Shown here one piece after another: positions 8,101 through 60,000 of a stretch of 60,000 bases of DNA. Origin of the DNA: Tubiluchus corallicola. Its lineage: Eukaryota > Priapulida > Priapulimorpha > Priapulimorphida > Tubiluchidae. Under the pieces are notes generated by a model that saw nothing but the letters and a program-made list of their open reading frames with translations, had not been told where the DNA came from and searched no databases. How positions within the stretch are numbered: the stretch's first letter is position 1; each line of letters starts with the position of its first letter. The position numbers and the translations under genes were made by a program. Where the stretch lies: the NCBI GenBank assembly GCA_030141605.1, contig JAQGDQ010000056.1, positions 498,001-558,000 of the forward strand. The letters are read 5' to 3'.

Positions 8101-9699
8101 TCATAACTTAATCATCACACTGCAGTGATTTTTTGTGCAAAAGAGCAGAGCTATTAGTATTCTAAACTTTATTAAAACTTTAAGTAAGGTGAACAGCAAA
8201 GGTACAAAATATAATGTCACACTATTCTAGAATATTGCTAAAAGAACCTAAGCCAAATTGCTCTCTAGCTGATCCTGAATGTTAAGACGTTGGGGTCTGT
8301 TTACAGTTCTAGAACAACAGTGTTATCTGTTATGCCTTAAGAAACAGATAGATACCGAGCCTGATGCTGGTGAGAGATGCCTAAAATAAAATGGAGTACC
8401 ATGTATACCGAATTAATTGACAGCAGATATAACAAGTGATTATCTCTTTTCTGCACATACATTTACCTGTCAGAAATGTCATTTCTGACTGGTAAAGTCA
8501 AAGCTTTTTTGAACTAACTTCACAGATCAGCAATCATTAGCATTTCACTGTGCTGATGCATCTATCAGTTATTTACACCAAATTAGAGGATGACTTAATG
8601 AAAGAACAAAACCTTTGATTTATAAAACTTTTGTGCTTCTCCATTATATTTATGAATGTATGTTATATAATAATTCTTATGTTTGAAACATTGAAAAAAT
8701 AAACTTAATAAGGAACTATGCATTTTGACTCATTAAAGAGCTAACAGAAATTATAAAAATGAACAGTCCAGTAAACCAATAAGGAAACTTGCAAAGGCCC
8801 TGCAAAAAAATTCGCACATAAACCCACAATGACAAACCATACTACATCCAACACCCCACACCACCCACAGCACTGCACAAACATCACTCACAACACATCA
8901 CATCACCACACCCACCACACTACACCAACATTGCACACAACACACTGCCCACACAATACCACCCCACCAAACTACACACACCACATCATCCACGCCACAC
9001 CAGACTCACCACACGAAACCCACCACATCACATGGTGATCATAATGATAATGATGATGACAACACCAACAACATCAACACCAACAGAGAGCATCATAGTG
9101 AAACCTTGCAAAACATTTTGCACAAAATTGAAACTGTATGCTGAACAAAAGCTCTTAGACTCAACCACAAATGATCAATAATGCACGAACATTCTACAAG
9201 GGATGTGAAAATACATGTGGTAAGTTGTCAAAAACAAGTTTAAGTAAATTTTGATTCCAATAAATTGCTATTTCCAATTCTTTCTCTAAATTAGAAAAGA
9301 ATCCTTTATCAAAATACTGCATATACCAAAGGCATAACTAGCACACATAAAACAGCCAGAAATGCTTAAATATTCATAGTTAAGAAGAGTTAAAGAAATT
9401 TTCCATAGAATGAAAATTGTAACATTAGCTTTAAACTATTTGCTCATTTACAACATGTAAAACTAAAACCACTAAAAACCACTTCTAAACACCTGATTAT
9501 TTCATGTACTTTTTCTGTTTTAGCCACAAGGCGACCGCAACAAGAATGGTGCTATTCTGGGCAGCCTCTCTATTCAGGTGATAGCCTAGTATACTGCGGT
9601 ACCAACAAAAGATGTCCATTTGGCTATCATTGTGAAAGTGGGCACTACGATGATGGTAGATCATACTGTTGCACGGGTCGGGGACGGGCACGATTTTAG
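5000..9699 (+). CDS. secreted protein of alternating WAP and lustrin-type domains
   Basis: Six exons are read: 5000-5054, 5899-6084, 6286-6477, 7175-7363, 7874-8065 and 9524-9699. They give about 329 residues. Exon 1 is a signal peptide (ATG at 5000, after CAAC). Exons 2 and 4 are nearly identical WAP-like domains (CPNLSGVFYCPAT, eight cysteines, QKCCDAP). Exons 3 and 5 are nearly identical six-cysteine lustrin-type domains (HCGSHSACPFGYHC) that end in a Thr-rich tail, likely an O-glycosylated spacer. Exon 6 is a more diverged lustrin-type domain followed by an Arg/Gly-rich C terminus and TAG. All introns are phase 1. The exon pair 2-3 was duplicated as 4-5 together with intron sequence. The product is presumably extracellular; inhibition of proteases is inferred from the WAP fold only. 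Confidence 0.85.
5587..5758. repeat. 86-bp tandem duplication in intron 1
   Basis: Two head-to-tail copies with period 86, starting at GAGAAATTG in both cases, differ at only one or two bases near their ends (ACACG versus ACATG). The duplication lies just upstream of the first WAP exon of the 5000-9699 gene. Confidence 0.9.
5899..8740 (+). repeat. tandem duplication of WAP-lustrin exon pair with flanking introns
   Basis: Unit 1 contains exons 5899-6084 and 6286-6477, and unit 2 contains 7175-7363 and 7874-8065. Similarity continues into introns: sequence after 6478 resembles that after 8066. The block near 6968-7043 resembles 8668-8737, so the start of a third unit is present, but no WAP exon follows there. 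Confidence 0.7.
8820..9040. repeat. CA/ACC-rich low-complexity tract
   Basis: About 220 bases consist almost only of A, C and T on the plus strand with irregular CAC, ACCAC and CACAC words. The Thr/His-rich open frame at 8829-9038 is a by-product of this composition and is not called as coding. Confidence 0.8.
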
Positions 9700-19000: not shown

Positions 19001-22000
19001 CTACGGGAAAAATTCCTTGTGTGTTAGTGTGTTTATACAGGGTATCTGGCAGAAGAAAAAGGTAATTATGATGATATAATGGAATTTACTGTACTATGAT
19101 AATTTCATGAGTTTAGATTGGTTTTTACAAAAGTGAATCGCAAAAATGCTGTACTTTAAGAAATCAATACATCATTGCAAAGCAGTTAACTATGAGACCT
19201 AAAAGGTGCTAGCAAGCAAAAGTTAAAATGCTTTAGTACGAATTTTTGTATGATAACGATATATGTGAATGAAGCAAGGACCACAGAAAATGACAAGCTA
19301 AGATCACGATGTCATTAATTTAGCCCAAGCATTTTAAAGGGGAAAAGAATCACATCAAAAACAGAAACTGGTTAGGCCTGTTCAAGGGTAATTAAGCATA
19401 AGGCTGAATAATGTGGCCTAAACTGTTTTCATTCTGTGTGTGATTTACATAGATAATTATAATACGCTAAACCATGCAAACCAGTTGGGTAAGAGTATAT
19501 CTACTTCAACCGTTGCAAAAAGAAGTTAGAACGTGTATCTGGAAGATATGCTGTTCATATACGAACAGCATAGTTCTCGACAACAGTTTATGATACCAAA
19601 CTATGAAAAACTGTTAGCAAAGTATGCTAACAGCTTTAATGCAAAAGTAGTAACTTGTGTGGACTTAAAAATATCCATTTCTTCAGTTTATATGGAGCAA
19701 CAGCAATGCTTCTGTCCTTAATATAAATCACTATATGCCAACAGTAAGTAGTCAACATAAGCAGAAGGTAACCCCATTTGAAACTATTACTTTAATATTA
19801 CTATTACATATAATAATCTTAATTACTGAATAGTCTACTTTCATTCATAAAATTGCCTCATCTAAAAAAGCGTACTAAATAAAAGAAATTGTTGGCTCTT
19901 GCTGTTATACATTACCAAAAATATTTCGCGATACTATTTATTATTTTTATGACGTTACTTACAAACCTTTTGTTGTCCCCAAAATTGCATTGTTTTGTTT
20001 AGATTTATGTATTTTGTTTTCAGTTTTTTTTTGATAATTTGTACTATTTTTTTCTTATTTGTTTTTGTTATCTGCAGCATCACCATTTATTTTTAATATA
20101 CCAATTTATCTATAAGAAAGGGCAGGAGACTAGATGACCCTATGGTCCCTCCTTGCCCTGCTCCATAATTACAATTATTTAATATTTAACAAACTTTTGC
20201 TGTAAAGCTATATTGGAGAAAATAAATGTTTTATGTCTGTGTCTATGTCTATGTAATGAATAAGCAAGTACCCTGCCAATTGCTTATTGACTGCAGTACG
20301 GACTTTTAGACACAAATAATCATCAAGTCAATATGCAATCGTTTAGCAAACTTTTAACAAATAAGCCCTGCAGTGACAGAATGAGAGTCAAACATGTAAT
20401 AAACTAAAATTGCTGCTCTGATTTAAAATATTACTGCCATACTAACAGTCAGTAAAATCTATTTAAAATTATATTAAAAGTTGTGTACGTGGGCAACTCT
20501 GGCAGCCAAGATACTCTAAGCTTTGTATGGGCACAAATAAGTGTATTGTCAACATAACTTCTTAAATTAACAACTTATTATTTAGCAAAATTAATTAAAT
20601 GTTGATTATTAAAAAGAATACAGCATCTTTTACTAAGCTGGAATAAAATTAATAATGTTGAGTTTAACGAAAACTATGGAAACATACATACTCAAGCATG
20701 CCTTGTTCCTCTTTACAATCACCCCAGTTTAATGATGAAGGGAAACTTCTTGTATATCGAATAGATTGCTGTTTTGATCTAATAAATATTCGCGAAATTT
20801 TACGGAGATCAATGCAATCATATGATACTGATCTGTAAAAAAACCGAGAAAATATCTAAAAATGTGAACATCCAGTGTCACAACTGTAACTTGTACCAGC
20901 AGCAAATGAGAAATGATGTGTGACAAATGTTCGAGAGAAGTACTCAAATATAAGTGTTAATCTTTCATGCTGAAACGTGTAATTACCCATGGCAAATAGA
21001 CTGAAAATAGTGAGCTGGGCCAAGTTGTGTTTCCAAAAATGTCATGGAAAAAATTGACATGCTTCTTTATTTAACAATTTACTTATATGAATGGAATTTC
21101 GAGTGATATCATAACAAATGACTGCAAAAATTCACATACATATTAATTATAACATAGTCTTATCAATTTATAAACAATATCATGCCAGAATAATGTGGAT
21201 GACATACTTTACAATATTTATTTTAATCACTCTTTATATAAAGAGAATATGCCTATAAAAAGGAGTTGCTGATGGAAAGTAGCTTCTTGTAGAACATTTA
21301 ATTTTACATGATGATGATACTGATGTGATTCGCACCATTTAATTCAAATAAATTGATAACCACTTTAGTTAAAAATACTAGTGAAGAGATTTGAAATCTA
21401 CTGAAATTAAAATAACTTTTATAGTACCAAAACTACCAACAGAGTACAGACTTTTTTCTGTCATCCATCTGCTATGATTTTAACTTTTGGCTGCAATTTC
21501 CTCCGGGATTTTTTTATGATTCTCTTTTGCAAAGTCAATCAATAGGACATAATGTCATGGAAAGAAAATTGCAACTGAGTGAAAAAAGATAATAGGAAAC
21601 TTTGCAGCAATATCTAATAGATTCTGTTGGAGACTGGGTCAGCTTTAGTCATTTCTTACACAGTGTTGGAGAATGAGCCAATTTTCCTCTTATACATATA
21701 TGAGCAATTTCACTGTATGCACAAAGCAGAACAAGGCACTCGTACTTTTAAGCCAGTCAAAGTCCTTGCAATAACCAGTTAGTGATCAAGCTAAATAACA
21801 AATTTTACAATCAGGGTGATAATGTTTAATATCAAACAGCAATTGTGGGATATCAGAACAAGATAACAATAGTAAATTTGTTTTTGGCAAGAGAAATAAT
21901 TATGAAATCCAGAATACTGATTTTAAAAATGATAGTGTCCCCTGACTTCCCAAGTGAAAAAAAGGCCCATAGCAATCTCTATTGATTTAGTTTGCTTAGT

Positions 22001-25000
22001 TAGCAGCACTGCCCTACAGCTTCATTGTTATTTCAATCAAAAAAGTTGGTTCACAGAAAAAATTATTTTTATAACACGACTGCAAATGTCTTTTATTTTT
22101 GAATATTATTTGATAAATGACGTAAGATTTTGTACCTGCTTGTACATATTAAGCCTCATTGTCAGGAACTTGCTCTCTAACAGATCATTTCATTTCATTA
22201 ATCGGCATCATTCCACCTAAATAATATGATAATGGCACAGTCCAATTTACTAACCTTGAAAGCACCCCAGATTCGTGACCTTCAGTATCACTGCTACTAC
22301 TCTTACTGCCAGATAAGTTCTATAAAATAATAAACACTGTTAGATATATAATAATGAAGAAAGGCAGAGCATAGTTGTCTTCTCTTGTCCAGTTTAGCAT
22401 ACTAGCTAACAAAACTTTAACTACATTTTTTTATTTTCTGTGAGTAAAATTCTAGGTACTCTACTATCAACTCACTCTCCCACTCTCAGCATTGCAAAAT
22501 GAAGCTATACGCATTATAAAGCCTGAATCATAAAACAAGGAATCCAAAATATGCAATACAAATTTGTTGTTCAATGACATGCAATAAGAATAATAGCCTA
22601 TACAGCAGTCCGAAGAACATGAAAATACATAAACAAGTGTACAAATATTATTCATGCAGCTAAAATACAAAAGTGCATATAATCTGCACATATATTATGA
22701 GCTTCTTGTATGCAGAATAATTGTTTGTAGCTACACTTATTTTGGGCTAATCCATAACACAAACATGTGCGTAGCAATCCAGGAAATGCCGTGGAGATTA
22801 TGCCACCTAAAATTAGTTTTACAATAAAAAAGAGGAGCATAAATATACTGAAATCCCAATTAGCGACTATTTTGAAGGGTGATAATTTTGGCAACCAAAA
22901 TTAAGCAAAGCGGATAATGCCAATTTGGGACAATAAATTTTTTGTGAAAGATTTCAACCTTTAATTTTTATTGCTTATGCTGGATTGTTGGATGATGCTG
23001 TAATTTATTATAGCCTCCACAGTTCAAATTAATTCAAGACCTTTTGCAACCATTTTTACAAAAAATATTTGCACATACATTAAGTCCTCCTTTGACGCTT
23101 TCTGGCTTAGCAATGTTTCGTTTTAATGACGCTGAACATTTGACATCTTTTTTCATTTAACGATGCACCGTTTCATATTAACAACAATTTTTTTACTTTG
23201 CTCGAAGCCAATTTTTATTTTGTCAACAATTTTTTACCTAATTTGATGCATTAAAACAGTACATATTGCGTTATTCTGTTCTAAAAAGGCACTAGTAACA
23301 TAAACAGCGCAATTATTATACAAGTATACGCTTTTGCTTCCCAACTGACCACGAAATTCTTGCCGCTTGTATCAAGCGAGATTGAGGGGCAAACTTTATG
23401 AGAAGAAATTTTGCCTGCATCCTGTTACTATAGCAACCAGACTAAGTATCCAGATAAAAGGTCGTCCCAGGGTTTGCCTTTGACTCTGCTGCAGCATTTA
23501 TTGTTTAACCGTTGCCTAGACTTAAATATCAACGAAAGACAAATCACTAGCTAGGTAAAAGTAAGGTGGCTTACTAGGTAAATATAGGTGGCTTCAAGCA
23601 AGCAGAAAGAAATTAATCAGTAGAATCATGAGTAAAACTCATGAAACATTTAATTTATATGATTTAAACATCATTGATTTTTCCCTCTGGAATGTACTTC
23701 AATTCTTTTACATTACTTTCTGTGAAAGTCTTGGCTTCATTTAACGATGTTTTACTCAATGTCGTGTTTTGCTGAAATGCATTAGTGTCGTTAAGCAAGG
23801 ACTCACTGTAATTGCAACGAGATCATAATTAAAGCACTGTACTTACCAAGATAGATTTAAGCAACTTATCCTTTTTGAAATCAAATTCTGGCACTTCAGT
23901 AAATGGTTTTATTGCAATAGTCATTGATTTACTAAGACGTTGTTCTGGAAGCAGTTTCAGCCAACTTGTAGTAAGCTTTCTTTTTGCATGACGATGCGCC
24001 CGTGGCTCGTTTGTCTCTAAGACTTCATGTTTTTTTGTTAATGAACTGTTACCAATTCTGGTGTCACTAAGGCGGTCACGATTTATCGTTCCACTTTTTC
24101 TTTCATAAATAGTCACCAACTGCTGGCTGTCAAGGTCTGCCAAAGTCCTCAATTCCTTCTCTAACTGCAACTTTTCTTCCTTCTCCTCAAGCACTGTCAC
24201 AGTTCTGTCCCGTTCTCTTATCAAATCTGTGAGTGACTGGTCAACTTTTTGCTGGACTGCGCTTATATTGTCCACTTTACTTGGAACTGTTACTTCTTCT
24301 TCCTTTAAAATAGAAGACTGCTGTCTCTCTTTATGTCTCAGGTGCTTTGGTGTCTTGGCCCTAGTGCTAGGAACTTGCAATGTTCCTGGTTGGACATGAC
24401 TAGTAGGTTTACTGGCAGAATCTTTCACTGTCTCAGATTTTTCAAGTTCGTCAATCTCACTGTGCAGGAATGCTGCTTGTTCCATAACTTCATCTTCGAC
24501 GTATTCTAATGACAGTTGTTTTGCAAAAGTCAGCCTGCAAGTAATAAACAATTTCACCAATAATAAACCAGTTTTTCATTTCCCAACCACAGTGCAGCAT
24601 TTAATACAACTGAAGTATACACATCTGTGAATAAATTAACAAAGGTTGTAGATGTGCCATTCAGACACAGATTAATCAACTTTCCCAACACGTTCATTTA
24701 AAACTTCAGCAATAAAATAAAAAAAGTTTTTACAGTGCTATATCAACATAAGGATTTGACACTTGAATTATTTTTTATTTTACAGTTTTGCTAGAAATAA
24801 AGAGCATATAAATGAACATTACCTTAAACAACTAAAAACAAAAACAATTATGAAAGATGATGCAAAAACTTAGGGAGGCGACATTTCACAAAAGTTTTGC
24901 TTGTTTCCTAAATAATAATATATGTTTCTATAATAATCTGATAAAAAGATTGCTCATTTTGTTGAAAATTTCACAACAAAACTGTCAAAGTGCTGATTAA

Positions 25001-28000
25001 AAGGCAAATTTCACATGAAACTGAATAAATCGCTTAGAATTTTAAATCTTCTACCTGTAATCTTAGTTGTAATGGCAATCTTAATCTTGTTTACGTAATC
25101 ATATTATATATTACAAATAGCACTACATAAAAAGGTTAACTTTTGCACTAACTACCAAACAGGATAGTCTATTTTAACGGTTGTCGTTTGCTAAGACATT
25201 TCAACAAGCATTGTTAATACATCTATTTTTGCAAAAAGAAAAAAGGCAAAAAATAAAAGTGGTGCACATTAGAATTTTGGGTCTCCAACATGCTAGATTC
25301 TTGGCCAAAGGAGTGACTTGTTTACATGTACTGCTGCTTACTTGTTTATAAAATCTAACTTCACTTTGCAAATTTTTGTAACCTGATTCAAAATTTTTCT
25401 CTCTCCATTCAATATGTTAATGGTCAAAAATATGACACAAGATACGGGAATGATGTAGACGTCAATAAATCAACAATAACCTCCTACGCAAATAGATGTC
25501 TGACTGTGTAAGTTTATATGCACTGAGTTTCTCCGGTGGCGGAGGTTCTAAATGTCTGGCCTGTTCTTCAGTTTTGGCCAATTTAGCATAGTCGGGTGCT
25601 TCTGTATATCTGTCCAGTGAGGTGGCTGGCAACAAAGTTTCTTGAAATTCGACTTTGCTTGAATCTGCAGTCCCGGATACTCTAAGCTCAGGTGGTACTA
25701 TGTGTTTAACAGACTCAACAGGTAAAATTGCAGGAAATAATGTTTCCTGGAAGACAACAGATTCATCTTCTTTAAAAAATATAAAAAATTTTATGCACTA
25801 AATAACAGCAACAATAATAAATTACGCTAAACACAAGCAGAAGATGATGTGGCTTTAATTTACAACTGTACTTAAGCAAAATATATTAAACATCTGAAAT
25901 TCCTGTTTTAGCAAGTGGAGAGATGGTAAAATTGCTGAAACTATAACCATAAGTCCTCAATGACACTAGCTTATATAAGCACAATTTGCATTCACTATAC
26001 AGTCAAAAATTTGCATTTACTACCATCACTGACAAAGGTCCTCAAGTTAGTCTCTTGACTAAAAGAGGAACCGTGAGATCAAAGACATGAACTATATTTG
26101 TAAAACAGTAAACAGAATATCTCTCAATTGCTTTTTTATATATGATGCCTAATTGGCTGCTTTATAAGAGTACATCTTTAATGACCTTGCACTCATTTGC
26201 CACTTATGTTGTTCGAACTACTCCTACTTTGAGAAAATTTACACGGTTTAATTAACCTAACTGCAAACTTTCAGAAGAAATGTTACCAAATGCACTCTTT
26301 TCCACAGCTCAAATGTTTTACTCCACCATGCCATAAATCCCACCTAAACACCACCTTCAGAAAACCTAAAGTGCCTTTAGAAATGAAAGTTCAATTTACC
26401 CGACCACCTTAAGCTCCAAACCTAAATATCGCAATCCACAACAATGCAGTATCAGTATGAATATCAATACAATTCAGATGTGTGATTTAGGTCTGTCTGT
26501 AAGAACAACAATATAAAAACAACAGAAACACAAACTGTGATGATGTGCATTGTGTAAATGTAAAAGTTTCACTACACTCATAAATATATAAAACATGGTG
26601 AAATTTGTTTATCCACAAGGACTTGAATCAACACTTTTGCATGATAACTGTGTCAGCTGTGAGTGCAGAGGAAAACACTCTAAATCAATTTAAGAACCTA
26701 TATCAGAAATGGATTAAGTTTCGTTCAATTTTGCAGCAATATGTCTACAACTGATTTTCTTTATTTTAATTTCAATAAATTTTGTGCAATGTCCAATCAT
26801 ATGATTTATCACATATTACGTAAAAAGTTAACCAAAAATCAAATCTTGGATGCCACATCTCCTGTCATCAGTTGTCTCTCATTCATCAATTCAACAGCTT
26901 ATTCATTATTGTGCTACCAACCATCCAGTTATCAATTCCTAGTGTCGAACCAATAGCGCACACACTTTTCACAAATGGTATATCAAAATACATTAACAAA
27001 ATTACTGACCTCTACATATGGTGGAGGAAGGCAAAGTTTGGGAGGTGCAGGGACACAGTACATGGTTGTAGCTGCAGTTGGTCCAGACAGTTCATTAGTG
27101 TTAAGATTTAATGTGGAAATTGGAAGTCCAACACGGTTCAAACGCCCCTAGAATAGATCATATGTCAGCTAAAAGTAAGCAGCCTTAGAAAACTAAGTAT
27201 CAACAGATATTTTAAACCCAATTAAACCACATTAGAGATGCTGTTACAGTGCTCAAAAATAGCAACACTTTTTGCATGACCTGCAAGTGTAACATTTAAC
27301 TTGTTTCTTTGCAAGCTGTTAACAATCCTGAATAACATAATTATGAACAATTTATGTACAGAAGTTCAGTGGGTCAGACTTACAGAATATAGAAATGGAG
27401 ATTTTACAGCTCCCGAAAAGCTGTCAACATGCCGCAGAAGATATTGCAAATGTTTTGGCAATTGTTCAACTGTCTCTGGAAGGGTACAGAAATGATGAAT
27501 TCTCTTTCTTTCCTTTGTGGAACTTGTGGCACTCTTGGGGTGAGATAATGCTCTTTTCGAATCACCAGTGCTTTCCGCAATTGCCTTGGCTCTAAGCTGC
27601 ATGTTTGAAGATTTTTTGAAAACATCTGGTTCTATTGTTGAAGAAACTAATTTCTCAGCTGGTTCAATTTTTACTGCAGTTTTTTGCAAACTTGTTGTTC
27701 TTAAAGCATGACAGTCATTAAACTCAGTTTCCTTTGCATTTATTTTAGTGACAGACAAATCTTCGTCAAATACAGGAGTAGTCGTCACCTGAAGCGAAGG
27801 CAAGATTGCGTGATTGCTAGAGTCATATCTGCTGACATTTTTCGTCATTACATTGGAGTCAGCCATTTTTTCTTCTTCAGTAGTTACATTGAATGCTTTT
27901 TCTTAAAAAAATGCAAACAAATAAAACTTATTAACCTATTAAAATTATTTAAAAGACTAAATGGAGACTAGTAGTAAATAAATCCTTTTGTATATGATGT

Positions 28001-47122: not shown

Positions 47123-50100
47123 TCACTGTGAAAGGCAAGTGCTCGCACAATCACCTTTTGATAAAAAGTTGTTACCATTTCCGCCACAACCGCTGTACTC
47201 AAAGCGTTTACATTCTCTTGTGTGCGAATCGTAGAACCAGCGCTCCCATTTTCCATAGCATTTACCATAATCAGGCATATTGAGACAGAACAAAAATCGT
47301 GGCTCATTTTGTGTGGTGTTGCTACATCGTTCTGTGCAAGCATCTTGTGTCTTGAAGTTATTTGCATTGCCTCCACAGCCTCCATATACAAATTTTTCAC
47401 AATGGTAACTGGTTGTATTAAAGAACCAGCGAGTTACTTTATCACCGCATGGTCCTTTTTTAATTGGCATCTTACAATGAGCTGAAAATGAATATTTATA
47501 ATGTGATGTAAGTTTATAAACTCTTGTTATTTTTAGTGCTGCACCAGTATGACAGATGAAACTGTACAGAAGCCGTTTTCTCAACACCCAACCATTCTTC
47601 CATTAGCTAGGACCTACTTAATCTCATTAGTTATGCATATCATGTAACTGTAGTTTCAGCCGTAAAGCGACAGCATGCTAAAGCTTACATTTTACATACA
47701 ATCCTATCCTGTTATGTCCTGTTTAATTTCATTAGTGATGCAAATCCGGTAACTATAGTTGTAGTTGTAAAGTGACAGCATGCTAAAGTTTACATTTTAT
47801 ATACAATCCTATCCTGGTAGGATTTTTGGTAAGCATATGTATATTATACAAATATATTTAATGGTTGCCAGTGAGTAACCAACATTAAAATTGTTTCTTA
47901 GTTTTTGTTTTATCAGCTTCTCCTGTTGTCACACCAAAGCAAATCACTCCAAACAAACCAGGAGGCACTCAAGGTAAGGGCTGCAGTTAAAAAGCGAAAA
48001 TACAAATACAGTTCCAGAAAAAGGGGGTTTTGATAAGAGGTGTGGGCAGATGTTCCAAAAATGATATTGTCCCAATTTATCAGAAAAACTGATATCTGGT
48101 AATGAATTCCATAGGTAAGAGAGAGTCAAGAGCAGCAGAAAAATAAATAAATCCTCATTTAGTATGTATTTAAAGACCTCATTGATTACTACTAGTGTAG
48201 ACTTGGACTTGTACTATATTACCAATTTGTCGATGCATAGTTTCAATAAGTTTCAATAAGTAAATTTCTACCAGCGGCATGGTGTTAACAAGGTACGGCA
48301 ACAGTAATGCTTTCTTTAATGATACATACTTAAAGTTGAGTGAGTGAGTGAGTGAGTGAGCTAGTGAGAGAGAGAGAGAGTGAGAAGTGCTGCAGTGTAC
48401 AAGTTACAACAAGCAAAATGCTCATTAATCATCAATAAATTGGTTATGTTTTGGCCAGCTTTGTAGCATCTTAGTATCATTAAATACAGCAATGATAAAA
48501 AAATTTACCTGGTATAAATAAAGTGTCATCCATTTGCTTTTTGCTCTCTGAAAATAAATATTAATACTATCAAAAACCAGTAAGAAAGATCAATGTTTTT
48601 TACTTTTCTTAAAGCCATGTTATCTAGGATGGCAACCATTACAGTTTTTGTACTAATGTAACAAACTTTCTGTTCCTGAGTCTTGCAAACTGGTTTGTGA
48701 AATGTTTAAAATATTTGTTTGAAATGTACTTTTTGGATTTCCTGTTTCCTGACGGAGTAGGGGAATATTTTAGGGAAGAGAGGGTAAAGGTGTGCGTAGG
48801 CAGTAACAAGAAAGAACTAATATAGAAATGTATTACTGATATTTTACAAATTACAAAAAACTGCCAAAAGTGAAAGGTCATTTGCACTTGGGAAGCATTT
48901 AATTTTGAATACTGTGATGATTAATAAAGCTGTGCAGCTGCAAGCATTTATTAGTTGTTTTCTAGTGAAGATAGCGACTGAGCTGCCTATTAAGCTAAAC
49001 GTAATTAGGATACGTTTCACGTAAGTGTTACAGGTGGAGTGACTTAATCTTTATTGTTTTTGACAGAACAAAAACCACCAATTTTTGGCTACTGATACAT
49101 AAATAGAAAGTGGTTTAAAATAATGTTATCACATTTCCACATTTATTTCCCGAATTACTTTGCAAACAAAAATAATTTGCAGAAACGTTATTTTTATAAG
49201 GGAATGAGCTGTATAGTGGTAAATTATACGTACACTTACGAGACGGTACTTCTACACAAATGTATTCGCATCCAGCCCGACCTGTCCAACAACATTGCTG
49301 ATTATCTCCAAATCTTTCGCAGTGAGAGTTATCATTGCAAACAACTTCTTGTCGGTTTGGACATGCTTCGAGAGTGGACAAATCAGGACATTGACCTTCT
49401 GTGCAAAGAAAATTATATTTTTTGCTAATAAAACTAACTGAAAAAGCCTTTCTAGGTTCTGCGATATTGAACACTGTTATTATTCAAGAAACAAGATGTA
49501 GCAGTTTTTGCCAAGTTGGTAAGCATTTATAAGGCCCATCTGACTGTGCGCTTTACTGGAATTAACCGTGGTAAACTTGCCATGCTTTTCACACCAAGTC
49601 CTGCCTGGGACTATTCTCAGTTTATGCTCTGTCTGGGTTCGTCAAGTTCAACGTTTTTGAATTAAAACAAGGGGCTGACCTCATTCTCAACTTGGTTCTT
49701 CCATAAAGCAAGCAGTCTTTGCAATGCAGATCAGACATCATTAGCTTACACAAAACACTTATGTTATATTAAAATTTGATATAAATTACAGTGCTGAACA
49801 ACTTAACTTAACACAAACTATGTAAGCACAATGCCCCTGTTGCAAAAGTAAATTACATTTAAAATAACATTGAGTTACAGTTTATTATATATTTTTAGTT
49901 TGATCATGCACGTATGCCTTACCAATTACAAAAGGCGTCATTCTGTTTCCCCCTCCAACAACAACATCACTACCTGGAAGCGTGAGATACTATTAGTTGC
50001 GAAATAACATTAGCTTGTTAATTTGGCATACAGTGGTTAGCTGATAATAAGAAAGCAACTCCAATTCACCAAACGTGCTTAATGTTAATTTATGAATGCA

Positions 50101-53100
50101 TAGTAATTAAATACAAGGGTTATTGTAAGGAGAGGCAAGAAGGACAAAAACGTGATGCCTGGATTCCGGAATGTAAAATTTACATACTCCTTTTGCAAAA
50201 TTACTAATGTACTTGGGAGTCCAGTTATTCAATGTTTATGAATGTTGTCGGAAATTCATTTTTCACTAGCTGTTATGCTGTCAAAAGTTGTTTTTCTAAA
50301 GTTTTTCTTTATATTTTGGATTGATTCATACTCTTTTTATTCTGTTCTGCAATAGATTTCTTTCTTTGTTTTTTTAAGGCGAGTTTAGTCTCGGATCACG
50401 TGAAGTTTTGAATGCTATTTTTAAAATAAAAAAAACTACATTTTTATTAAATTCTGATCTCAAATTTGATCTATAATTAAGACTTGTAGGCTACTGCAAA
50501 TAGAGCATCACTTCAACAGCATTAATTTCTATAGTTATTACACTTCATTAGCAATACAAAAAAGCACAAATTACTAAACATTATCACATTAATACAAATA
50601 TGATCTTTATGCACTAAATGCAACAGTTTTTTGCTTTATAGCCTGCTGTAAGTGAGCACACTTAAAGACACAGTGGCTTTTATTGACGTGAACACTTCAA
50701 AAGCTCTCTGCACATTGTTAAACATCAGCTACAATAGCATCGTCAAGCTGTTTTGTGAATCCTGAAAATCTTGCTGTTTTTGAGATTTTTGTTCACAGTG
50801 ATCAGTCAACAGTTCATACCTTTCTTAGGTACAAGATCAACGCAAAGTTTCCTGCCAAAGCAGACAGATGGACCAGGACAACAGCCTTGACCTTGAATGG
50901 TGCAGTGTGATGGGTCGTTGCACACAGCAGGAAAAGGACACGAGCGTAAACCCGATAGATTCGGGCACACAAGTCGTACTGCAAGATTTGCTCCTGTAAT
51001 ATTTACAGCAAAATTGGTGACAAACACAATCAGGAAATAAAGTATGCTCAGCTAATTTGCTCAACATTGCAATGTTTGTGAAATGTAAATATTTGTAAAG
51101 TAGCATTTTGACTGTTTTATTATTGCACATAACTATATCGTCTAAGCCAATTTCATTATGCAAACAATTTTATTTGCATCAAGTCGTTTGATTTGTGGAT
51201 AAGCTACAAATAAGGCTATGAAACGATGCTAGGAAGAATTCTATGTAAAACAATGCTGAATGAAAAATCTAAATGAGCAATATATGAATAAACTAATAAG
51301 GTAATGAAAATATTGCATCTCACAAAAATTATTGAATTCCTTGCACTTCAATTTATTTTTCAAAGTAATACACTAATATCAGGACTTGTAATTACTTACT
51401 ACAAAATGTTCTCACACTTAAGTAAAATAAAGTAGATTCGACATAACTCACATTATGAAGGATTAGACTGAAGGACTAAGACTAGAATTTTTAAAAGAAC
51501 TACGCTAGATACACAAGCAGTCATTACTTTCTACATGGAATTCGTACATTTACAGCTGACAAGTCAAAAAGATTCGTGTCTGTAGTAACCTTACATAGGC
51601 ATGTTTAGAATTCTGGTTTGCTATCTTGAAACAAGTCTTTAAAGACTATAATATTTACTTAACTATTGCTTTACCTAAGTGTTTTGATGGATTTACACTC
51701 ACTCTGGCTAGTTATATAGGTAAGGAGTGTATAAGAAACAGCATGATGTCTACACAGTATTTGTACAGCAATCTGCAAGTGGAGCCAGTTCTCTGCAACA
51801 AGGGCTAATAAATATAGACATTGTGGCAGAAAAAGAACCCGTTTTATTTTCAAGGATAATGCTCTAAGATGAGATGCTGAATTGATAGAGAACTAGAGGT
51901 GTCTAGCATTAATACACTTCCTCCCAAGAGTTAATGCCATAGGTTGTAATTGCAGGTCAAATATCTGTGCATCCCAGATAAGCCAGTTTTGAAGTAAATG
52001 CTCAAAGTCTCACAATAAAATTTGTTATGTGTACAAAGTTTCCAATTTAGTTCAGTATCAAAACACATAAAAGCATTGCAGGTTCTTTTTAGAATTTGTT
52101 GTGAACCATATGCCAAGTTGCACAATACCAAGTTATGCAGAATCTACTGTTTACCTGATTATTTTTATTTTTTTATATCCAAAGTAGAAACACTAAGTGA
52201 TCAACATTTAATGAGACAAACCTTCCTGACATTGCCCAGAATGCTCCACATTAAGTTTTGGGTTGGATAATTTTGCGCAGTCTAGGTGGCACTTGTTGTC
52301 ATAGGTTTGCCCATCAGATCCACATACCGGATCTAGCACAGTTGGACAAAAGCATGTTGGCGGCTCAGTTGGACATTCACCTTCTCTGTCCATTGAGAGT
52401 GTTGGATCTTGTCTTTGGGCACACTGCAGCTTACAGATATTGCCATATGTTTTTTTATCAGTTCCACAGACGGGACGGTAGGCTCTGTTGCAGTGGCAGA
52501 CAATGGACTTCGAGCTGCATTCTCCATCTGATACCTTCTGTATGTCTGGATTGCTGGCTTGTGCACATTGCAACTCACAAAGATTGCTGTACGTTATTCC
52601 GTCATTACCGCACACTGGTGTGTAATCTTCTGTGCATCTGCACAACTTGTCGCATTCACCATCAGTTAACTTTCTAAGATTTTGATCATTTTTCTGGGCA
52701 CACCTAAGGCGACACTGATTGTCATAAGTTTTTCCATCAGTTCCGCAAACAGGAGTGTAGTCTGTTGTGCAAGGACAAACTGACTGTGAACCACACTCAC
52801 CATCATAGCGCTTTATTAAATGAGGGTTATCTCTTTGAGCACATTCCAAACCACACTGATTGCCATATGTTTTTCCATCACTTCCACATACAGGGGTGTA
52901 ATCTGCAGTACAAATGCAAGGAGACGGTTTACGACATTCACCGTTATAAAGTTTAGTCAATTCAGGGTTATCTTTCTGAGCACATTCCAAACCACACTGA
53001 TTGCCGTACGTTTCTCCATCACTTCCGCAAACAGGGTTGTAGTCAGCAGTACAAACACAAGAAGATTGTTTGCCACATTCGCCTTCATAAAGCTTAGTCA

Positions 53101-56100
53101 GCCGTGGGTTATCTTTCTGAGCACATTCCAATCCACACTGATTGCCATATGTTTTTCCATCACTTCCACAAACAGGGGTGTAATCTGCAGTACAAACACA
53201 AGGTGACTGTCTACCACATTCTCCATCATGGCGCTTAACCAGTTGTGGGTTAGATTTTTGTGCACACTCTAGTCTGCACTGATTGCTGTAAGTTTTCCCA
53301 TCACTTCCACAGACAGGCCTGTAGTCTGCAGTGCAGATACAAATAGACCGACTTTCACACTCCCCACTGTAAAGTCTTGTCAAGTGGGGGTTATCTTTCT
53401 GGGCACACTCGAGATTGCACAGATTACTGTATGTTTTACCATCACTTCCACATACAGGATCATATTCGCGTGTACAGGAACAAGCTGCCAAACCAGTGCC
53501 ACATGGGCCAGATGAAGCTTTTGTAAGCTGTGGATTTTTTCTCTGAGCGCAGCCCAATAGGCAGGGATTGTTGTAAGTCTCACCATCGCTCCCGCAAACA
53601 GGATCTAATATTCGTGTACAGAAGCACCTGTCACGACTGCCTCCAGTAGGACAAGCACCTCTGTGGACTTGTTCTAATTCAGGCTTATCCTTTTGCGCAC
53701 AACTGAGAAGACACGGGTTGTTGTAGGTTAGGCCATCACTGCCACAAACTTCATTTAATTCCCTAGTGCAGAAGCAGAGCTTACTTTCCGTATCAGATTC
53801 GCACGGGCCATCTTTTAACTTTCTTAATTGTGGATTCGAGAACTGGGCACATGTGAGAAGACAGGGATTATTATATGTTGTATCATCATTTCCGCAGACT
53901 TGGTTCAATTCTCGAGAGCACGCACAAGGTTCTATAGCAAAATCCTGTACTGGACATTCACCTGCACTGATTTGTGCTAACTGCGGGTCGTTTTTCTCCA
54001 TGCATCTAAGAAAACATGGATTGTGATAGGTTATTCCATCAGAGCCACAGACTGGTTCTCTCTGCCTTGTACACTTGCACGATGGCTCATTAATTGTTGT
54101 GCAAGGACCATCACTCATCTTTAATAGTTGAGGCTGCTGTTGCTGTACACACAGTAGCTCACACAAATTACTGTAAGTTTTGAAGTCATTTCCACAGACA
54201 GGATTATTATCTAATGTGCAGCGACAAGCAGGAGGTGAATTCACAGTCTTGGAAACTGAAGATTTGAAAAATATTAGTTAAACTATTAGAAAATTAACTT
54301 ATCTGCACAATGAGAGCGCCTATGTCTTAAGTGCCTTTTCATTACTGATTTTTCAAGCTATTAGATATGAAGAAACCTAAAAATTAATAATATACGTACA
54401 CTAATATCCTGCCCGTGATGCCACATCTATTCTTAGATACTGTACATCAGAAAACCATCTATGCTGTGTGATTGCTTGATTTTCACGTGGATTCACAACA
54501 ACTTATACAAGCTTGCTTGGCTTCTTGCTCATAAATTTACAAGACATATCTTCTAGTTGTGAATCTTGTTTACCAACTTGACTTGATCTCTCCAAATTAA
54601 GATGTTGTACACTTATAGTACACAGCGGTTTAGAGGTGTTGTTCTTTTATCTTGCATTACTTGTAGTATTCATTATATAAGAGTATATTACTACCACAGA
54701 CACAAAATAGTTCCTATAATCAAATAACTTAATTGCCAAATTGTGCCAGTAAGCCTGCAATTCCGGACAAAGGGTCATACAAATTAAATATCATGCATTT
54801 CACTTAATATTTGTTTATTTGCTAACCAGTTTATCTTAAAATTAATTGTTTAATATATACTACCACATTTTTTTGCAATTTTATTTCAAAATTGAGGCTT
54901 TGTTTAATTCAGCACAAGTGCAAGAGGCCATCTTTAAATAAATGAAAGCAAAAGCTTTAGGCCTTGCTCGAACCATGTCAGTTTGTAAAAAATTAGGAGT
55001 CAAAGAATTAAACTACGGAATTATTGCTCTTGCAATAGCACTGAGTTATTTACGCACCTACACACTTTTCCTCACATGCTTGAATTGATTTAAAATTGTT
55101 GCCATTTCCTTGACAACCACCGTAGATGAACTCTTCACAGGATTTTGATTCTTCGTTGTAATAGTAGCGTCGGAAAGCGCCGCGGCAACGGCCTACTTTC
55201 TTTGGCAAGAGGCACCGTGCTGGTAATGCAAATAATATGTTTAGTTTTCACGAGAGTGTAAAACATACTTGAATAAATATTTTCAAGGCACCTCTGAATC
55301 CACCTGTTGTACAATTAAGAAAGAAGCTAGTTTGTTATCTTGCTCAGTTACAGTAATTGTTATAGGTAATGTAGCAAAAAGATTTTTCACTAATAATCTG
55401 ACCAGTTGAAAGTGAAAAATTGTATTTTGTTAACCATCTGTTTATTGTCCAATTTTGGTATAATGAACATCTATGTTACATATAATATATTGTTTTTCTG
55501 TTGCTATTATTAAAATGCACTTTTTAACTCAAAAATTTGATATGACTGAAATATGATTTTTTTCTTTTTTTAAATGCTTTTAATTTTTCGTTTTAGCCCT
55601 ATTTGTCAGAAACCATTTAGGGATGTAAAATATGTACTTCATGTAACAGAAAGCCATAAAACAGGCATCAATAAAATTACATCACAGTTTATATATGCAT
55701 GTTGTGAACTGGAACCTCCTTGCAACTTGCCTGGGTGTGCATTTCGTATTGTTTGTTGTTTCTGTTGACAACATGTGCCTCTATTTGTTCCTGCATTTGC
55801 TCTTGAAGGACCTTGACACTCTCCACCGGGACATGGATTAAAACCAACGACAAGGTTGCACAGTAATGGGGTATCGGGCATGTTGGGATCCTCCATGGGT
55901 GTATAGCCATCATAGCAAGCATCGGCATCAATGCCTAATTAAACATTTTGGCAAAAAAATTACCCACTTTCGCATTTATAAGTCACGTCATAAGAACACG
56001 TTGTTAATGGCACTATATTTCTAAACTATTATACAGCATGCATGCATATATTGGAATGACATGACTTTGTTACTCACAACCATTGTTAGACATGTTACCT

Positions 56101-57566
56101 GGAAAGCTTGTGTTACTTGTCAAAAGTTTTAATAAAGTCATTATACTTCTAAATTGCCTTACCTGGTAATTCAGTTGTAGACTCAGTTGTAGGTTCAGTA
56201 GTCGTATCTACTATAGGACAACACACAGCTTTGCGGTCGGCTATAGCTGTGAAGCATTCATAGCCATCCGGACAGAGAATTGCTGGCTTATTGAACAACC
56301 TGGGTGCGCATGTCAACTCAATGCTTGGGTTGTCTGGATCGGTTGCAGGCTTGCCTTCGTAACACGGGTTGAATTTTGGTTCTGGAGGGTGTTCAACTGG
56401 ACAGCACACCGCTGGAGCATCTGCTATATTGTCAAAGCACACATAGTTTTCTGGACATGGAAGACCTGGTCTGCCACCAAATCCACGTGAACATGGCCTG
56501 TTTTTGTCTGGATTATTTGGATCGGATGCTGGCTGGCCAGATTTACACGGATTAAATCTAGGTGGAGCCTCTGCAAAGATTATTGATTGTATTTGTGTAA
56601 AACTTGTTACTTAAACTTTTAAGTAAAATTTAAAAAAATATTTATGTTGTAGTGGGCATACGAAAGACAGTGTGGCATTTAATTACTATATTTTCGGTAC
56701 TGACATAGCTTACTGTATACCTGATTTCTTTATAGGGTCTACACAAGTCTTTGAAATTTCGCAGCTTGACACTTCACAGCAAAATTTTCCATCAGTGCAA
56801 TCCTGGTTAGTATCACATGCAAGATCTTTGATAGGTGTGGGAAGTGCATCCAAGATACAGAAGAAAAAGTTAGTTAAGTCTGGACATATTAATTCATCTG
56901 GAGGTCCTCCCAACACCTGAAACATAAATAGTTTGTATAAATATATATACAGCTTACAATCATACACATATCCTCAACCATCAGTTTGGTGACTATAAGT
57001 AGCCAAGTGGAGGGTTAGACGTTTTCATACTCGCTAATGTACTTCTTACAGTTAAACAGTTAAGGTTTAAAAGTTACAGAAAGTGTAGTTAACTATGCTT
57101 GCAGTTTATGTAGTTCAATGATAGATGATTTTGTTGTAGGTTATTTGTGACAAGAAAATAAAATTTAGATATTTTTTATGTACTATAGTTACATGACACC
57201 TAAAAGGCATACATCGAATTAATTTTCTTAATTTACAAAACAAAATCTATGAATGATCAATGTGTCAACCAGAAAAACTTTCACAGACAATTCTTAGTTA
57301 GGCCTATTTTACTACTTAATTTAGTATCGTTTGCAGACATCAGTAAAATTTCGTCTTTTTCAATAGCTTAACTGATTTGCGTTTTTGTCAGGCAACACTA
57401 TCAGGACTTGGGACGTAGTGATTAATAGTCATATGATTATTGTTGTGCACTCTTGAGGGCTGACAAAATTGTGAGGGCAGTATTTTTGAATAGACTGACT
57501 GTTGCAGTGAGAATTAGGAGTAAACAATCAAGGTATAGAAGCAATAAGGAAGAAAATGCAAGCAGA

Positions 57567-57599
<33 letters not shown>

Positions 57600-59581
57600 G
57601 GAGGGAGGGAGGGAGGGAGGTAGAGAGAGAGAGAGAGAGGGAGGGAGGGAGGTAGAGAGAGAGAGAGAGAGAGAGGGGGAGGGAGAGAGAGAGAGAGAGA
57701 GAGAGGGAGGAGGAAGACAGAGAGAGGAGGGAAGGAGTGAGAGAAAGAGAGAGAGAATAAAGGCAAAGAATAAAGCTCTGTGTATTGGAATGTGTGTTGC
57801 AAGGGGATAATTAACACATTTCCTTTCATTTAAAATGTATGGCTACTGGACTCCATACAAAACATCACTATTGATGAAGTACATATTTTCTTCTTTTGGT
57901 AATGTAGAAAAAAATCATTCTTTATTAATAAGATTTTGAAGTAAACTGACAAATTTTGCAAACGTCCAAATTTGCTTGCAGAATCTTAATAACTTCTTAC
58001 CTTTCTTACTTAATCAGTATATGTGTGCTTGCAAACCAAAACCGTCCATAAGTCGGCATAGTTGAAACTACGTTATGATGCTTCAAAGTAGAATGCACCA
58101 AAATTTTGGTCTAATAATAATTTTTTGTTTTTTATAAAAACAAATGCTAAATATACTGGACTTTTATATTCTAGCATCAAATTATCTAGAAAATGTCCAA
58201 AAAGTATTAAAAATTTAATTTTATAACCCCATGCAGAATTCTCTGCCTAGAAACTAGAAGTGCAATTGCAAAAAACTTTATTTTGAAACTTGGATAATAG
58301 CTCTTGGAAGCAGTCATTTTGCTTCCGTTTTTTCTGTTGCGAAGCCCAGACTTTTGTCAGGAAGAGCCATCTACTGGATTTAAACATAACTTTAATGTGC
58401 TCTTGTAAAGTCCATGGCAACCACACTTTAGTACGGTTGCTAAGTGTTTTGCAAAGGCATGACAAAAAACAATGGCTGACTTTAACAGAGATTTTCTCAA
58501 GATTATGTTTTTCACTGCATAGCATGCTCCTCAACTTCAATGTGGATTATCTCAGCTTAGAATTAACATAGAGTGATGAACTTGGTATCACATTGATCCT
58601 CATGAAATGGAGATGCAGGATACGTGAATAACTAGAAAACATTAATTGCCGATATATGGAGGATTTTGCTATGCATCCTCCTATAGCACACATATAATCT
58701 CCTTACACTTACAGTGTCTGGTTCAGAATCCTGTGAATCTGCAGCAAAAGCTTGGGGCTCCTCATTTTCTGTGAATAGAAAACATATTATACCATTGCAA
58801 TGAATACTGTAAAGCTTGAAAATATACACAGTTCATTCCTGAAATAATTTGCAACATAAAAATTCAAGAAATGAGTATGTCTTAGTAAAAACCATTTTAG
58901 GTAATGTGAGAACATTTTATCAAATTAACAAAAACTACATTTTCTGTGACATTAGCAGAATGGCTATTTATTAGCACTAAATTATTTTAGGAAGACACAT
59001 GTGGGATAAGGCAGCCTGAGAAATTCTCAAGAAGGTACATGATACAAAGAGATGAAAGTTATGACTGTTTTCATCAACTACCTCAGTAGTCTTAGGAGTG
59101 TAATAAGTGCTGGATCCCTGGTTCAATTCCTGGCTTCACAGTGCATTTTACATCACTTTGGGTCTTGAATATTTGAATAGAAAGAATCATCAAAAGAAAG
59201 GAATTAAGAAAACCTTTAATATATTACTACAGCATTACTCACCATCGCAAAAAGTGTAGCCTGGGCAATATTGCCCATTACATTGCAGTTTCAGTGTATG
59301 ACAGAACTGATTTCTTGGGCAAAGCGTTACCTAAATAAATGAAATACATTTACAAAATGCACCAGATAGGCACATATCATTGCAAAACTGCAACAAAAAA
59401 CTCATTGTTACTGTATTTCATTTTTTAAGAATTCAGTGATTAAGTGATTGATTTGTAAGCATACTAACCCTGCATGGATTAGACTGGCATTTACATACAG
59501 GACATTGTGTGTCTTCATCAATTTCAAAAATGTGACCATAATTGCAGTCCAAATTACAAGATCGGTCACAATGGGATGTAT
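47123..59581 (-). CDS. multi-domain protease inhibitor: antistasin-WAP-lustrin-Kunitz-Kazal(14), 5' partial
   Basis: Thirteen exons read right to left: 59469-59581, 59243-59330, 58713-58768, 56721-56916, 56163-56570, 55731-55934, 55058-55219, 52222-54255, 50820-50993, 49923-49973, 49240-49398, 48509-48547 and 47123-47481. They give at least 1346 residues. Domain order: an antistasin-like unit (CNLDCNYG..CPVCKC) and a PC-rich unit (NPCRVTLCP); an acidic linker; a WAP (KFCCE); two DPNNP-containing six-cysteine lustrin-like units with a Thr-rich tail; one variant of that unit; a Kunitz (FIYGGCQGNGNNF); fourteen Kazals; a WAP; a Gly linker; a WAP; a linker; and two Kunitz domains. All are secreted inhibitor folds, so the protein is probably an extracellular inhibitor of several serine proteases. 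The first exon begins in phase 1, so a signal-peptide exon must lie further right. One intron uses a GC donor at 55730. Confidence 0.85.
47619..47822. repeat. 105-bp tandem duplication
   Basis: Two diverged copies (47619-47723 and 47724-47822) share GACAGCATGCTAAAG and CATACAATCCTATCCTG-like segments. They lie in the intron before the terminal Kunitz exon. Confidence 0.8.
48337..48383. repeat. (GAGT)n(GA)n microsatellite
   Basis: A tetranucleotide run that passes into a GA run, in the last intron of the multi-inhibitor gene. Confidence 0.9.
52222..54255 (-). repeat. fourteen Kazal repeats in a single exon
   Basis: This 2034-base exon, phase 1 at both ends, has no intron and encodes fourteen Kazal domains of about 45 residues. 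Each shows C-x-C, PVCGxDxxTYxNxC and a closing GEC or GPC. The first two cysteines are one residue apart, a non-classical Kazal form. Repeats 7-10 are the most alike (CTADYxPVCGSDGKTYGNQC), which suggests recent unit expansion in the middle. Repeats 1, 13 and 14 are the most diverged. The residue two after the second cysteine, usually P1, varies: L in 1, R in 2-6 and 13, A in 7-10, T in 11 and 14, E in 12. Confidence 0.9.
57558..57760. repeat. GA/GGGA purine tract
   Basis: About 200 bases are almost purely purine on the plus strand, (GA)n alternating with (GGGA)n blocks, in a 1.8-kb intron of the multi-inhibitor gene. The Arg/Glu and Leu/Ser open frames over it are compositional artefacts. 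Confidence 0.95.
59078..59150 (+). mobile_element. possible tRNA-derived SINE head
   Basis: GGTTCAATTCC at 59120-59130 matches the polymerase III B box. A one-mismatch A box (TACCTCAGTAG) lies 41 bases upstream at 59079-59089, the tRNA spacing. It does not fold into a complete tRNA by eye, so a SINE head is likelier than a tRNA gene. It is in an intron, antisense to the host gene. Confidence 0.4.
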
Positions 59582-60000
59582 CTAAAATGTTAAGCAGAAA
59601 ATGAAACAAGCCTGCAGCTATACAGTACATTACATAATTATATCTTGTCAATATAACACGACACGTGCTGTGAGGTTCACCCATCAAATATTAATAAAAC
59701 ATGAGGTTTATTATACTAGCAATAAATTATAATGAGCCAAATTTAAATAATTCATGATGTAACAATAATAACTCGGTGATCTTGCAATTTCTTCCCTCTA
59801 ATGGGACTATCACATAGCTCCTAAAATAGGCCAGTTTTCGATAATAGCTCAATGCAAAAACCCAAGTCTTTCAGAAAACAAAAACCAGTTTTTAGCACAG
59901 CAAATGAACTTTTGGATGATAGGAAGTATTCAAGTTTATAATTTTGCAACAATGCTCTGAAGCAGTCAATGGGTCATTTTTGCTTCTCGTTTTCTTCCAC
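59582..60000. other. right edge, expected intron of the multi-inhibitor gene
   Basis: The first visible exon starts in phase 1 at 59581, so this stretch should be intron leading to an upstream exon. I find no signal peptide or cysteine-rich exon in it. Confidence 0.5.

What the first reader, a model, noticed from the sequence alone, without database searches (positions are those of the whole stretch)
47123..59581. A single gene combining at least five inhibitor folds and over twenty domains
The sequence shows antistasin-like, WAP, lustrin-like, Kunitz and Kazal modules joined in phase: 14 Kazals, 3 Kunitz and 3 WAPs in one frame-consistent gene. Each fold is known, but I do not know of this exact order. 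It may act as a broad extracellular protease shield, or be cleaved into separate inhibitors.
Basis: partly seen in the sequence, partly recalled or inferred. Interest (0 to 1): 0.8.

Follow-up and report, generated by a model that had tools for sequence, protein, structure and literature searches.

The report
Giant mosaic protease-inhibitor gene, animal
This stretch of animal DNA holds most of one very large gene for a probably secreted protein strung together from about forty small modules, mostly of kinds known from protease inhibitors; a similar gene exists in the penis worm Priapulus, so it is a striking but not unprecedented design.

Summary
Observation confirmed, and the gene is larger than the window shows. 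A minus-strand gene runs from an ATG at window coordinate 74581 (beyond the right edge) to the stop at 47123: 30 exons, 2,313 aa, signal-peptide-like start, no internal stop. The window holds its last 13 exons: antistasin, an unnamed six-cysteine module X, 3 WAP, 3 lustrin, 3 Kunitz and 14 Kazal, the Kazals all in one 2,034-base exon. The 5' part adds thyroglobulin-1 x2, WAP x2, Kunitz x2 and antistasins. By far the best relative is the uncharacterised Priapulus protein LOC106813254 (P0002, 2,289 aa): the same six named folds, collinear through the 5' half, and also ending in two Kunitz domains. Arthropod proteins share a WAP-Tg1-antistasin-X block. More inhibitor-module clusters lie in the same genome, one apparently a paralogue. 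So: one real gene, a lineage-specific variant of a mosaic-inhibitor family not described in the papers I could search. Likeliest role, inferred only: a polyvalent protease inhibitor of an apical or cuticular matrix, like nematode MLT-11. Transcripts, species and activity are untested.

The parts
59469..59581 (-). exon 18 of 30: antistasin-like domain (residues about 971-998); enters in phase 1 from an exon beyond the window
   Evidence: Pfam Antistasin E 0.0065, below cut-off; aligned to P0002 CPDTSHC...DEDTQC; exon table
59243..59330 (-). exon 19: six-cysteine module X (fifth copy in the protein)
   Evidence: profile from 26 arthropod copies, 27.4 bits, 0 of 500 cysteine-preserving shuffles as high; no Pfam hit for it
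58713..58768 (-). exon 20: short acidic linker, enters in phase 1, leaves in phase 0
   Evidence: splice sites and frame only; gap in P0002
56721..56916 (-). exon 21: WAP domain 3
   Evidence: Pfam WAP E 0.048, below cut-off; general profile 14.8 bits, 0 of 200 shuffles as high; aligned to P0002 ICPDLT..FFC
56163..56570 (-). exon 22: lustrin domains 1 and 2
   Evidence: Pfam Lustrin_cystein 6.3e-8, 2 stretches; in a longer query E 0.001, below cut-off
55731..55934 (-). exon 23: lustrin-like domain 3; GC donor at 55730
   Evidence: no Pfam hit; family profile 13.4 bits, 0 of 1000 shuffles as high; general profile 62 of 200 as high
55058..55219 (-). exon 24: Kunitz domain 3, Arg at the reactive position
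   Evidence: Pfam 2.2e-21
52222..54255 (-). exon 25: 14 Kazal domains in one intron-free exon
   Evidence: Pfam Kazal_1 14 stretches E 5.1e-144; AlphaFold model with 14 Kazal-like units
50820..50993 (-). exon 26: WAP-like domain 4
   Evidence: family profile 27.7 bits, 0 of 1000 shuffles as high; general profile inconclusive, 46 of 200 as high; no Pfam hit
49923..49973 (-). exon 27: short linker exon, phase 1-1
   Evidence: splice sites and frame only
49240..49398 (-). exon 28: WAP-like domain 5
   Evidence: general profile 14.5 bits, 0 of 200 shuffles as high; no Pfam WAP hit
48509..48547 (-). exon 29: short linker exon, phase 1-1
   Evidence: splice sites and frame only
47123..47481 (-). exon 30: Kunitz domains 4 and 5, then TGA stop
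   Evidence: Pfam 1e-36, 2 stretches; P0002 also ends in a Kunitz pair, but the Kunitz tree does not pair these domains one to one
59582..60000 (-). intron 17 (part); the gene continues beyond the window for 17 more exons, ATG at window coordinate 74581 (L010:4581)

Best explanation
One animal gene encodes a 2,313-residue mosaic of about 40 small disulphide-rich modules. Shown by sequence: one collinear reading frame over 30 exons, six named inhibitor-type folds plus an unnamed six-cysteine module, homology to Priapulus LOC106813254. Judged by eye: a signal-peptide-like start and no membrane anchor. Inferred: the protein is deposited outside epithelial cells (cuticle or other apical matrix) and works as a polyvalent inhibitor. 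Modules hold proteases by their exposed loops; different loop residues would cover trypsin-like (Arg), elastase-like (Ala, Leu, Thr) and chymotrypsin-like (Tyr, Leu) targets, Tg1 modules perhaps cysteine proteases, and WAP, lustrin, antistasin and X modules also serve as spacers or matrix anchors. The 14-Kazal exon arose by tandem duplication inside one exon and raises valency. The functional steps are untested.
For: 30-exon model with one stop at the end, 280 cysteines. P0002 is top hit at E 0 / 1205 bits, next 446 bits. Pairwise alignment collinear through WAP-Tg1-antistasin...Kunitz-Kunitz-WAP-Tg1-antistasin-X-WAP-lustrin, and both proteins end in a Kunitz pair. P0002's two Tg1, missed in the whole-protein scan, are clear when scanned as pieces (2.9e-13, 9.1e-13). 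First Kunitz groups with Priapulus' first at 99/95, second with second at 93/68. Exons 2-5 and 16-19 repeat one four-exon block WAP-Tg1-Ant-X with identical phases. All 14 Kazals are 42 residues Cys to Cys; among the 32 of 91 pairs with usable dS the median dN/dS is 0.25, the three closest copies (K8-K9-K10) 0.09-0.10, i.e. purifying selection. Structure model: 14 Kazal-like units, 457 of 677 residues at pLDDT 70 or more, 11 of 13 linkers below 50, pTM 0.18; matches include rhodniin with thrombin (E 6.5e-8) and infestin 1 with trypsin (E 1.8e-3, TM 0.86 by target). Analogy: MLT-11 (signal, Tg1, 3 lustrin, 10 Kunitz) is needed for cuticle and moulting (PMC13181417: abstract and outline, found passages, section 21).
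Against: No transcript, proteomic or localisation data. Several loops look non-canonical (Kunitz 2 and 4 have Gly then Glu/Asp; Kazal 12 Glu), so some modules may not inhibit. The best Foldseek hits by E-value are follistatins, solved as complexes with activin, myostatin or GDF11. The last Kunitz pair and Kunitz 3 are not paired with their Priapulus counterparts in the Kunitz tree, most of whose forks are open. The two arthropod members I read (P0086, P0089) look membrane-anchored by eye, this one does not. The phylum is not established (COX1: 0 matches in the assembly).
Confidence: 0.6

Rival explanations
1. Same single gene, but the protein is a precursor cut into separate small inhibitors, as reported for pacifastins (PMC13388995, passages seen) and recalled for insect Kazal precursors.
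For: MLT-11 is processed into at least two fragments (PMC13181417); linkers between Kazals look flexible; 22 dibasic pairs exist in the protein, about six of them in linkers by eye.
Against: No R-x-[KR]-R site; of 13 Kazal linkers only 1 holds a dibasic pair; linkers are 3-9 residues.
Confidence: 0.17
2. A structural or binding matrix protein: the modules are disulphide-rich building blocks (as in lustrin, or the Kazal-like domains of follistatin and agrin) and inhibition is secondary or lost.
For: Non-canonical loops in Kunitz 2 and 4; lustrin and X modules are not known inhibitors (recalled); in MLT-11 the lustrin domains and the Tg1 domain were dispensable; follistatins top the Foldseek list.
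Against: Loop residues typical of inhibitors in Kunitz 1, 3, 5 and most Kazals; Kunitz-1 loop CLAYIPRWW kept in P0002 and as CLAYMPRWY in the C2314 paralogue.
Confidence: 0.18
3. Two or more genes run together by eye (for example a break at the Kazal exon).
For: Introns up to 1.8 kb in the window (2.0 kb in the whole gene); linker exons 20, 27 and 29 rest on splice signals only. AATAAA on the minus strand of 47123-59581: 19, against a mean of 13.3 and a maximum of 22 in 200 single-base shuffles, so not informative.
Against: P0002 is one predicted protein with the same 5' order and a last Kunitz pair; locus C2314 shows Kunitz-Kunitz-WAP-Tg1-WAP-lustrin-Kunitz-Kazals-...-Kunitz-Kunitz and then a stop codon, in that order.
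Confidence: 0.05

Closest known systems
Priapulus caudatus LOC106813254 isoform X3 (P0002), uncharacterised protein
   Same: Signal-like start, WAP-Tg1-antistasin-X, antistasin run, Kunitz pair, WAP-Tg1-antistasin-X-WAP-lustrin, later Kazals, two Kunitz at the end; similar length (2,289 vs 2,313 aa)
   Different: Five Kazals at the N-terminus and Kazals interspersed with lustrins, no 14-Kazal block; no WAP pair before the last Kunitz pair; Kazal sets probably expanded separately (split in 74% of 200 bootstrap trees)
Arthropod WAP-Tg1-antistasin-lustrin proteins (P0085-P0091: Timema, Chamberlinius, beetles, mosquito)
   Same: Repeated WAP-Tg1-antistasin-X block with lustrins between some copies; same X module
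   Different: No Kazal in their Pfam columns, fewer or no Kunitz, 1,344-1,841 aa; hydrophobic C-terminal stretch in P0086 and P0089 by eye
C. elegans MLT-11
   Same: Secreted, Tg1, 3 lustrin, many Kunitz; cuticle matrix role (PMC13181417)
   Different: 10 Kunitz; the paper's text names no Kazal; WAP and antistasin are not in its domain list; collinearity not tested (sequence not fetched)
Papilin, agrin, follistatin, rhodniin, infestin
   Same: Share single module kinds (Kunitz or Kazal)
   Different: Different partner domains; collinearity not expected and not tested

Membership tests
Priapulus LOC106813254-like mosaic inhibitors | Two WAP-Tg1-antistasin-X blocks around an antistasin run and a Kunitz pair | tested here: met
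Priapulus LOC106813254-like mosaic inhibitors | Two Kunitz domains at the C-terminus | tested here: met
   one-to-one descent of these two domains not resolved
Priapulus LOC106813254-like mosaic inhibitors | Closest by sequence among all hits | tested here: met
   top hit at 1205 bits against 446; 115 of 227 positions identical to P0002 against 101 of 223 to the C2314 paralogue over a shared block
MLT-11 | One Tg1, three lustrin and ten Kunitz domains | tested here: not met
   five Kunitz, two Tg1, plus Kazal, WAP, antistasin; definition from PMC13181417
Papilin | ADAMTS-like thrombospondin type-1 cassette (recalled) | tested here: not met
   no such Pfam hit in scans that together cover the whole model
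Agrin | Laminin G and SEA domains after the Kazals (recalled) | tested here: not met
   no such Pfam hit in scans that together cover the whole model
Active protease inhibitor | Measured inhibition | not testable with these tools
   loop residues only

The most novel reading that the evidence does not exclude
An undescribed, ancient family of giant mosaic inhibitors, built on a WAP-Tg1-antistasin-X block already present before the lineages of Priapulus and arthropods split, has been expanded in this animal into several loci; one (C2314:66-137 kb) carries 125 profile hits to six inhibitor-type folds on one strand. These proteins would form a dense, polyvalent protease trap in the body covering, needed to control moulting or matrix turnover.
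Probability: 0.35. Interest if true: 0.65.

Novelty: new variant of a known kind. Interest (0 to 1): 0.42.

Why it matters
It ties an uncharacterised Priapulus protein, arthropod Tg1-lustrin proteins and, by likeness, nematode MLT-11 into one testable idea: that moulting or cuticle-bearing animals keep very large mosaic inhibitors in the matrix. The Kazal exon is also a clean case of domain multiplication inside one exon with changing reactive-site residues.

Tried and rejected
Separate-gene reading: not favoured, on collinearity with P0002 and the C2314 paralogue. Reading the ATG in the stop-to-stop frame ahead of exon 18 (MYCIAAGL...) as a start: rejected, because it reads through a pyrimidine-rich stretch and AG, and the fetched flank holds 17 more exons, most of them with homology to P0002. 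Naming the species: a COX1 search of the own assembly gave 0 matches, so COX1 was not found there; no protein search was left for a nuclear marker. Trees: few columns, mostly open forks, Kunitz bootstrap not settled; only the Kunitz-1 pairing is starred, and Kunitz 3-5 are not paired with Priapulus counterparts. In the Kazal tree my pattern took 10 of 11 Priapulus Kazals and none of P0003, P0004 and P0023, so the only outgroup was P0007 with 5 of its 16 matched Kazals. My first Tg1 profile was too loose and matched Kunitz domains; replaced, where the seeds included P0002's own two segments, so P0002's Tg1 were checked separately with Pfam. Low 'kunitz' scores on X modules are false. The profiles were seeded in part with modules of this gene and with one WAP and two lustrins of the left neighbour. 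General profiles did not support exon 26 or lustrin-3. Literature (open-licence PMC only): Kazal+Kunitz+WAP+lustrin+antistasin 0 papers; Kazal+Kunitz+lustrin 3 (one of them seen in passages, two only as listing); mlt-11+Kunitz 9; antistasin+Kunitz+'thyroglobulin type-1'+WAP 1 (listing only); Priapulus+Kunitz 0; Kunitz+Kazal+'multidomain protease inhibitor' 0; lustrin+thyroglobulin+antistasin 0. CG5639 (recalled as a fly member, not tested) appears in Grainy head tables as 'serpin' and as SLPI orthologue (PMC3348937, PMC6896185: passages only); not used as evidence.
Full report
What is there. The window lies at G000:C1961:498001-558000 in an assembly of 343.5 Mb and 2,344 contigs; introns and domain content show an animal. 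On its minus strand, stop-to-stop frames and splice sites give 13 exons between 59581 and 47123 that read as one frame ending in TGA. Pfam finds 14 Kazal (E 5.1e-144), 3 Kunitz (2.2e-21; 1e-36 for the pair) and 2 lustrin (6.3e-8) above cut-off, antistasin (0.0065) and one WAP (0.048) below it, and nothing for a third lustrin and two more WAPs. In a longer query the lustrins drop below the cut-off (E 0.001). The weak modules were tested with shuffles that keep the cysteines in place. A profile built from eight WAPs of this gene, its left neighbour and P0002 gives exon 26 27.7 bits, 0 of 1000 shuffles as high; a profile from seven lustrins gives lustrin-3 13.4 bits, 0 of 1000. With profiles built from other proteins exon 28 stands (0 of 200) but exon 26 (46 of 200) and lustrin-3 (62 of 200) do not.

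The gene is bigger. Exon 18 begins in phase 1 with no start codon of its own. Of the next 40 kb of the contig (L009-L012) the first 13 kb align by tblastn to the Priapulus protein P0002 in broadly the same order, and 17 further exons lead to an ATG at window coordinate 74581. The model has 30 exons, 2,313 residues, 280 cysteines and one stop; 23 of 29 introns are phase 1, five phase 0, one phase 2; 28 donors are GT and one GC (counted from the table). Site choice was manual, so the frame itself is weak evidence; the homology is the strong one. The first 1,003 residues hold Kunitz x2, Tg1 x2 and six antistasin stretches by Pfam, plus two WAPs (E 0.00043, just over the cut-off, and 3.2e-9). A six-cysteine module of about 31 residues, here called X, occurs five times; a profile from 26 arthropod copies scores the five at 25.0-27.6 bits, 0 of 500 shuffles as high for each. 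The five copies have no Pfam name in the pieces scanned (only a weak TILa match at E 0.94).

Inner structure. Exons 2-5 and 16-19 are two copies of one block, WAP-Tg1-antistasin-X, with the same phases (1-1, 1-1, 1-0, 0-1) and similar lengths (156/171, 198/213, 107/113, 88/88). The arthropod proteins P0085-P0091 repeat a block of the same kind, with lustrins between some copies. The 14 Kazals lie in one exon; each is 42 residues from first to last cysteine. The closest repeats are K8, K9 and K10 (82-87% DNA identity); 32 of 91 pairs have usable dS, median dN/dS 0.25. In the C2314 paralogue no open frame holds more than four Kazals and 4 of 18 sit alone in theirs, so the 14-Kazal exon is probably derived. 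AlphaFold on the exon with a six-row alignment shows 14 repeats of strand, helix and strand, mean pLDDT 71.3 for the best of five models (the worst 26.3), pTM 0.18, and confidence under 50 in 11 of 13 linkers: beads on a flexible string. Foldseek's best E-values are mostly follistatins, with rhodniin at rank 6; single-domain matches include infestin 1 with trypsin (E 1.8e-3, TM by target 0.86).

Relatives. Three protein searches returned 81, 12 and 14 hits. In their Pfam columns only P0002 of Priapulus combines Kazal, Kunitz, WAP, lustrin and antistasin. Its two Tg1 were missed in the whole-protein scan but are clear as cut-out pieces (2.9e-13 and 9.1e-13). The alignment is collinear over the 5' half, and both proteins end in a Kunitz pair; the rest of the 3' half differs. 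In the Kunitz tree the first Kunitz pairs with Priapulus' first (99/95) and the second with the second (93/68, not starred); Kunitz 3, 4 and 5 are not paired with their counterparts, and 28 of 44 inner branches are open. Kazals of the two proteins separate in 74% of 200 bootstrap trees, suggesting separate expansions.

Same genome. A Pfam Kazal search gave 139 matches and a lustrin search 47, both lower bounds. At C2314:112.8-137.6 kb an apparent paralogue shows the order antistasin, Kunitz, Kunitz, WAP, Tg1, WAP, lustrin, Kunitz, Kazals, lustrin-Kazal-WAP repeats, lustrin, Kunitz, lustrin, Kunitz-Kunitz, then a stop codon; I did not splice it. Next to it, 66-111 kb is packed with lustrin-WAP exons and more Kunitz and Tg1. 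In all, 125 profile hits lie on the minus strand of those 80 kb (42 WAP, 42 lustrin, 18 Kunitz, 18 Kazal, 4 Tg1, 1 antistasin). Over a shared block the window's gene is identical to P0002 at 115 of 227 positions and to C2314 at 101 of 223; C2314 and P0002 agree at 101 of 225. This hints, without a tree, that the duplication is older than the split from Priapulus.

How it may work. Shown: domain content, order, family. Inferred: secretion (signal-like start, no anchor, both by eye) and inhibition. Kazal loop residues, read by the rule 'second residue after the second cysteine' (recalled from ovomucoid), are Arg in six, Ala in four, Thr in two, Leu and Glu in one each. For Kunitz the residue after the second cysteine is Leu, Gly, Arg, Gly, Tyr (read). 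Kunitz 1 keeps CLAYIPRWW in P0002 and CLAYMPRWY in C2314, which hints at a fixed target; Kunitz 2 and 4 look non-canonical. [quoted passage not shown]). I file the gene as a lineage variant of the Priapulus-type family, working like a matrix inhibitor such as MLT-11, without claiming that it is MLT-11.

Limits. No RNA evidence, no species name, no assay. The literature was searched only in an open-licence library.

Noticed in passing
window 932-9675 (+) and contig left of it to window coordinate about -11561 (L013, L014): One or more further inhibitor-type genes, convergent with this one: WAP x3 and lustrin x10 in the window, and to the left on the same strand five Kunitz hits (one partial), a WAP fragment and one Kazal (Pfam lustrin in three of the frames, two above cut-off; seven lustrins over the cut-off).
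   Followed up: partly
L016-L023 (G000:C2314:66,000-137,600, minus): 125 hits to six inhibitor-type folds on one strand, including 28 lustrin-WAP exon units, some nearly identical to each other, and an apparent paralogue of the window's gene ending near 112,775.
   Followed up: partly
residues 197-1032 of the model; window 59243-59330: An unnamed six-cysteine module of about 31 residues shared with arthropods, five copies here.
   Followed up: yes
window 55730: A GC splice donor (GCAAGT) after exon 23 is used in the model to keep the frame.
   Followed up: no
window 16724-27902 (-): Four long open frames; one has a weak TPR match (E 0.00031, below cut-off), the others no clear family.
   Followed up: no
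window 57520-57760: Long CT/AG-rich simple repeat inside the intron between exons 20 and 21.
   Followed up: no
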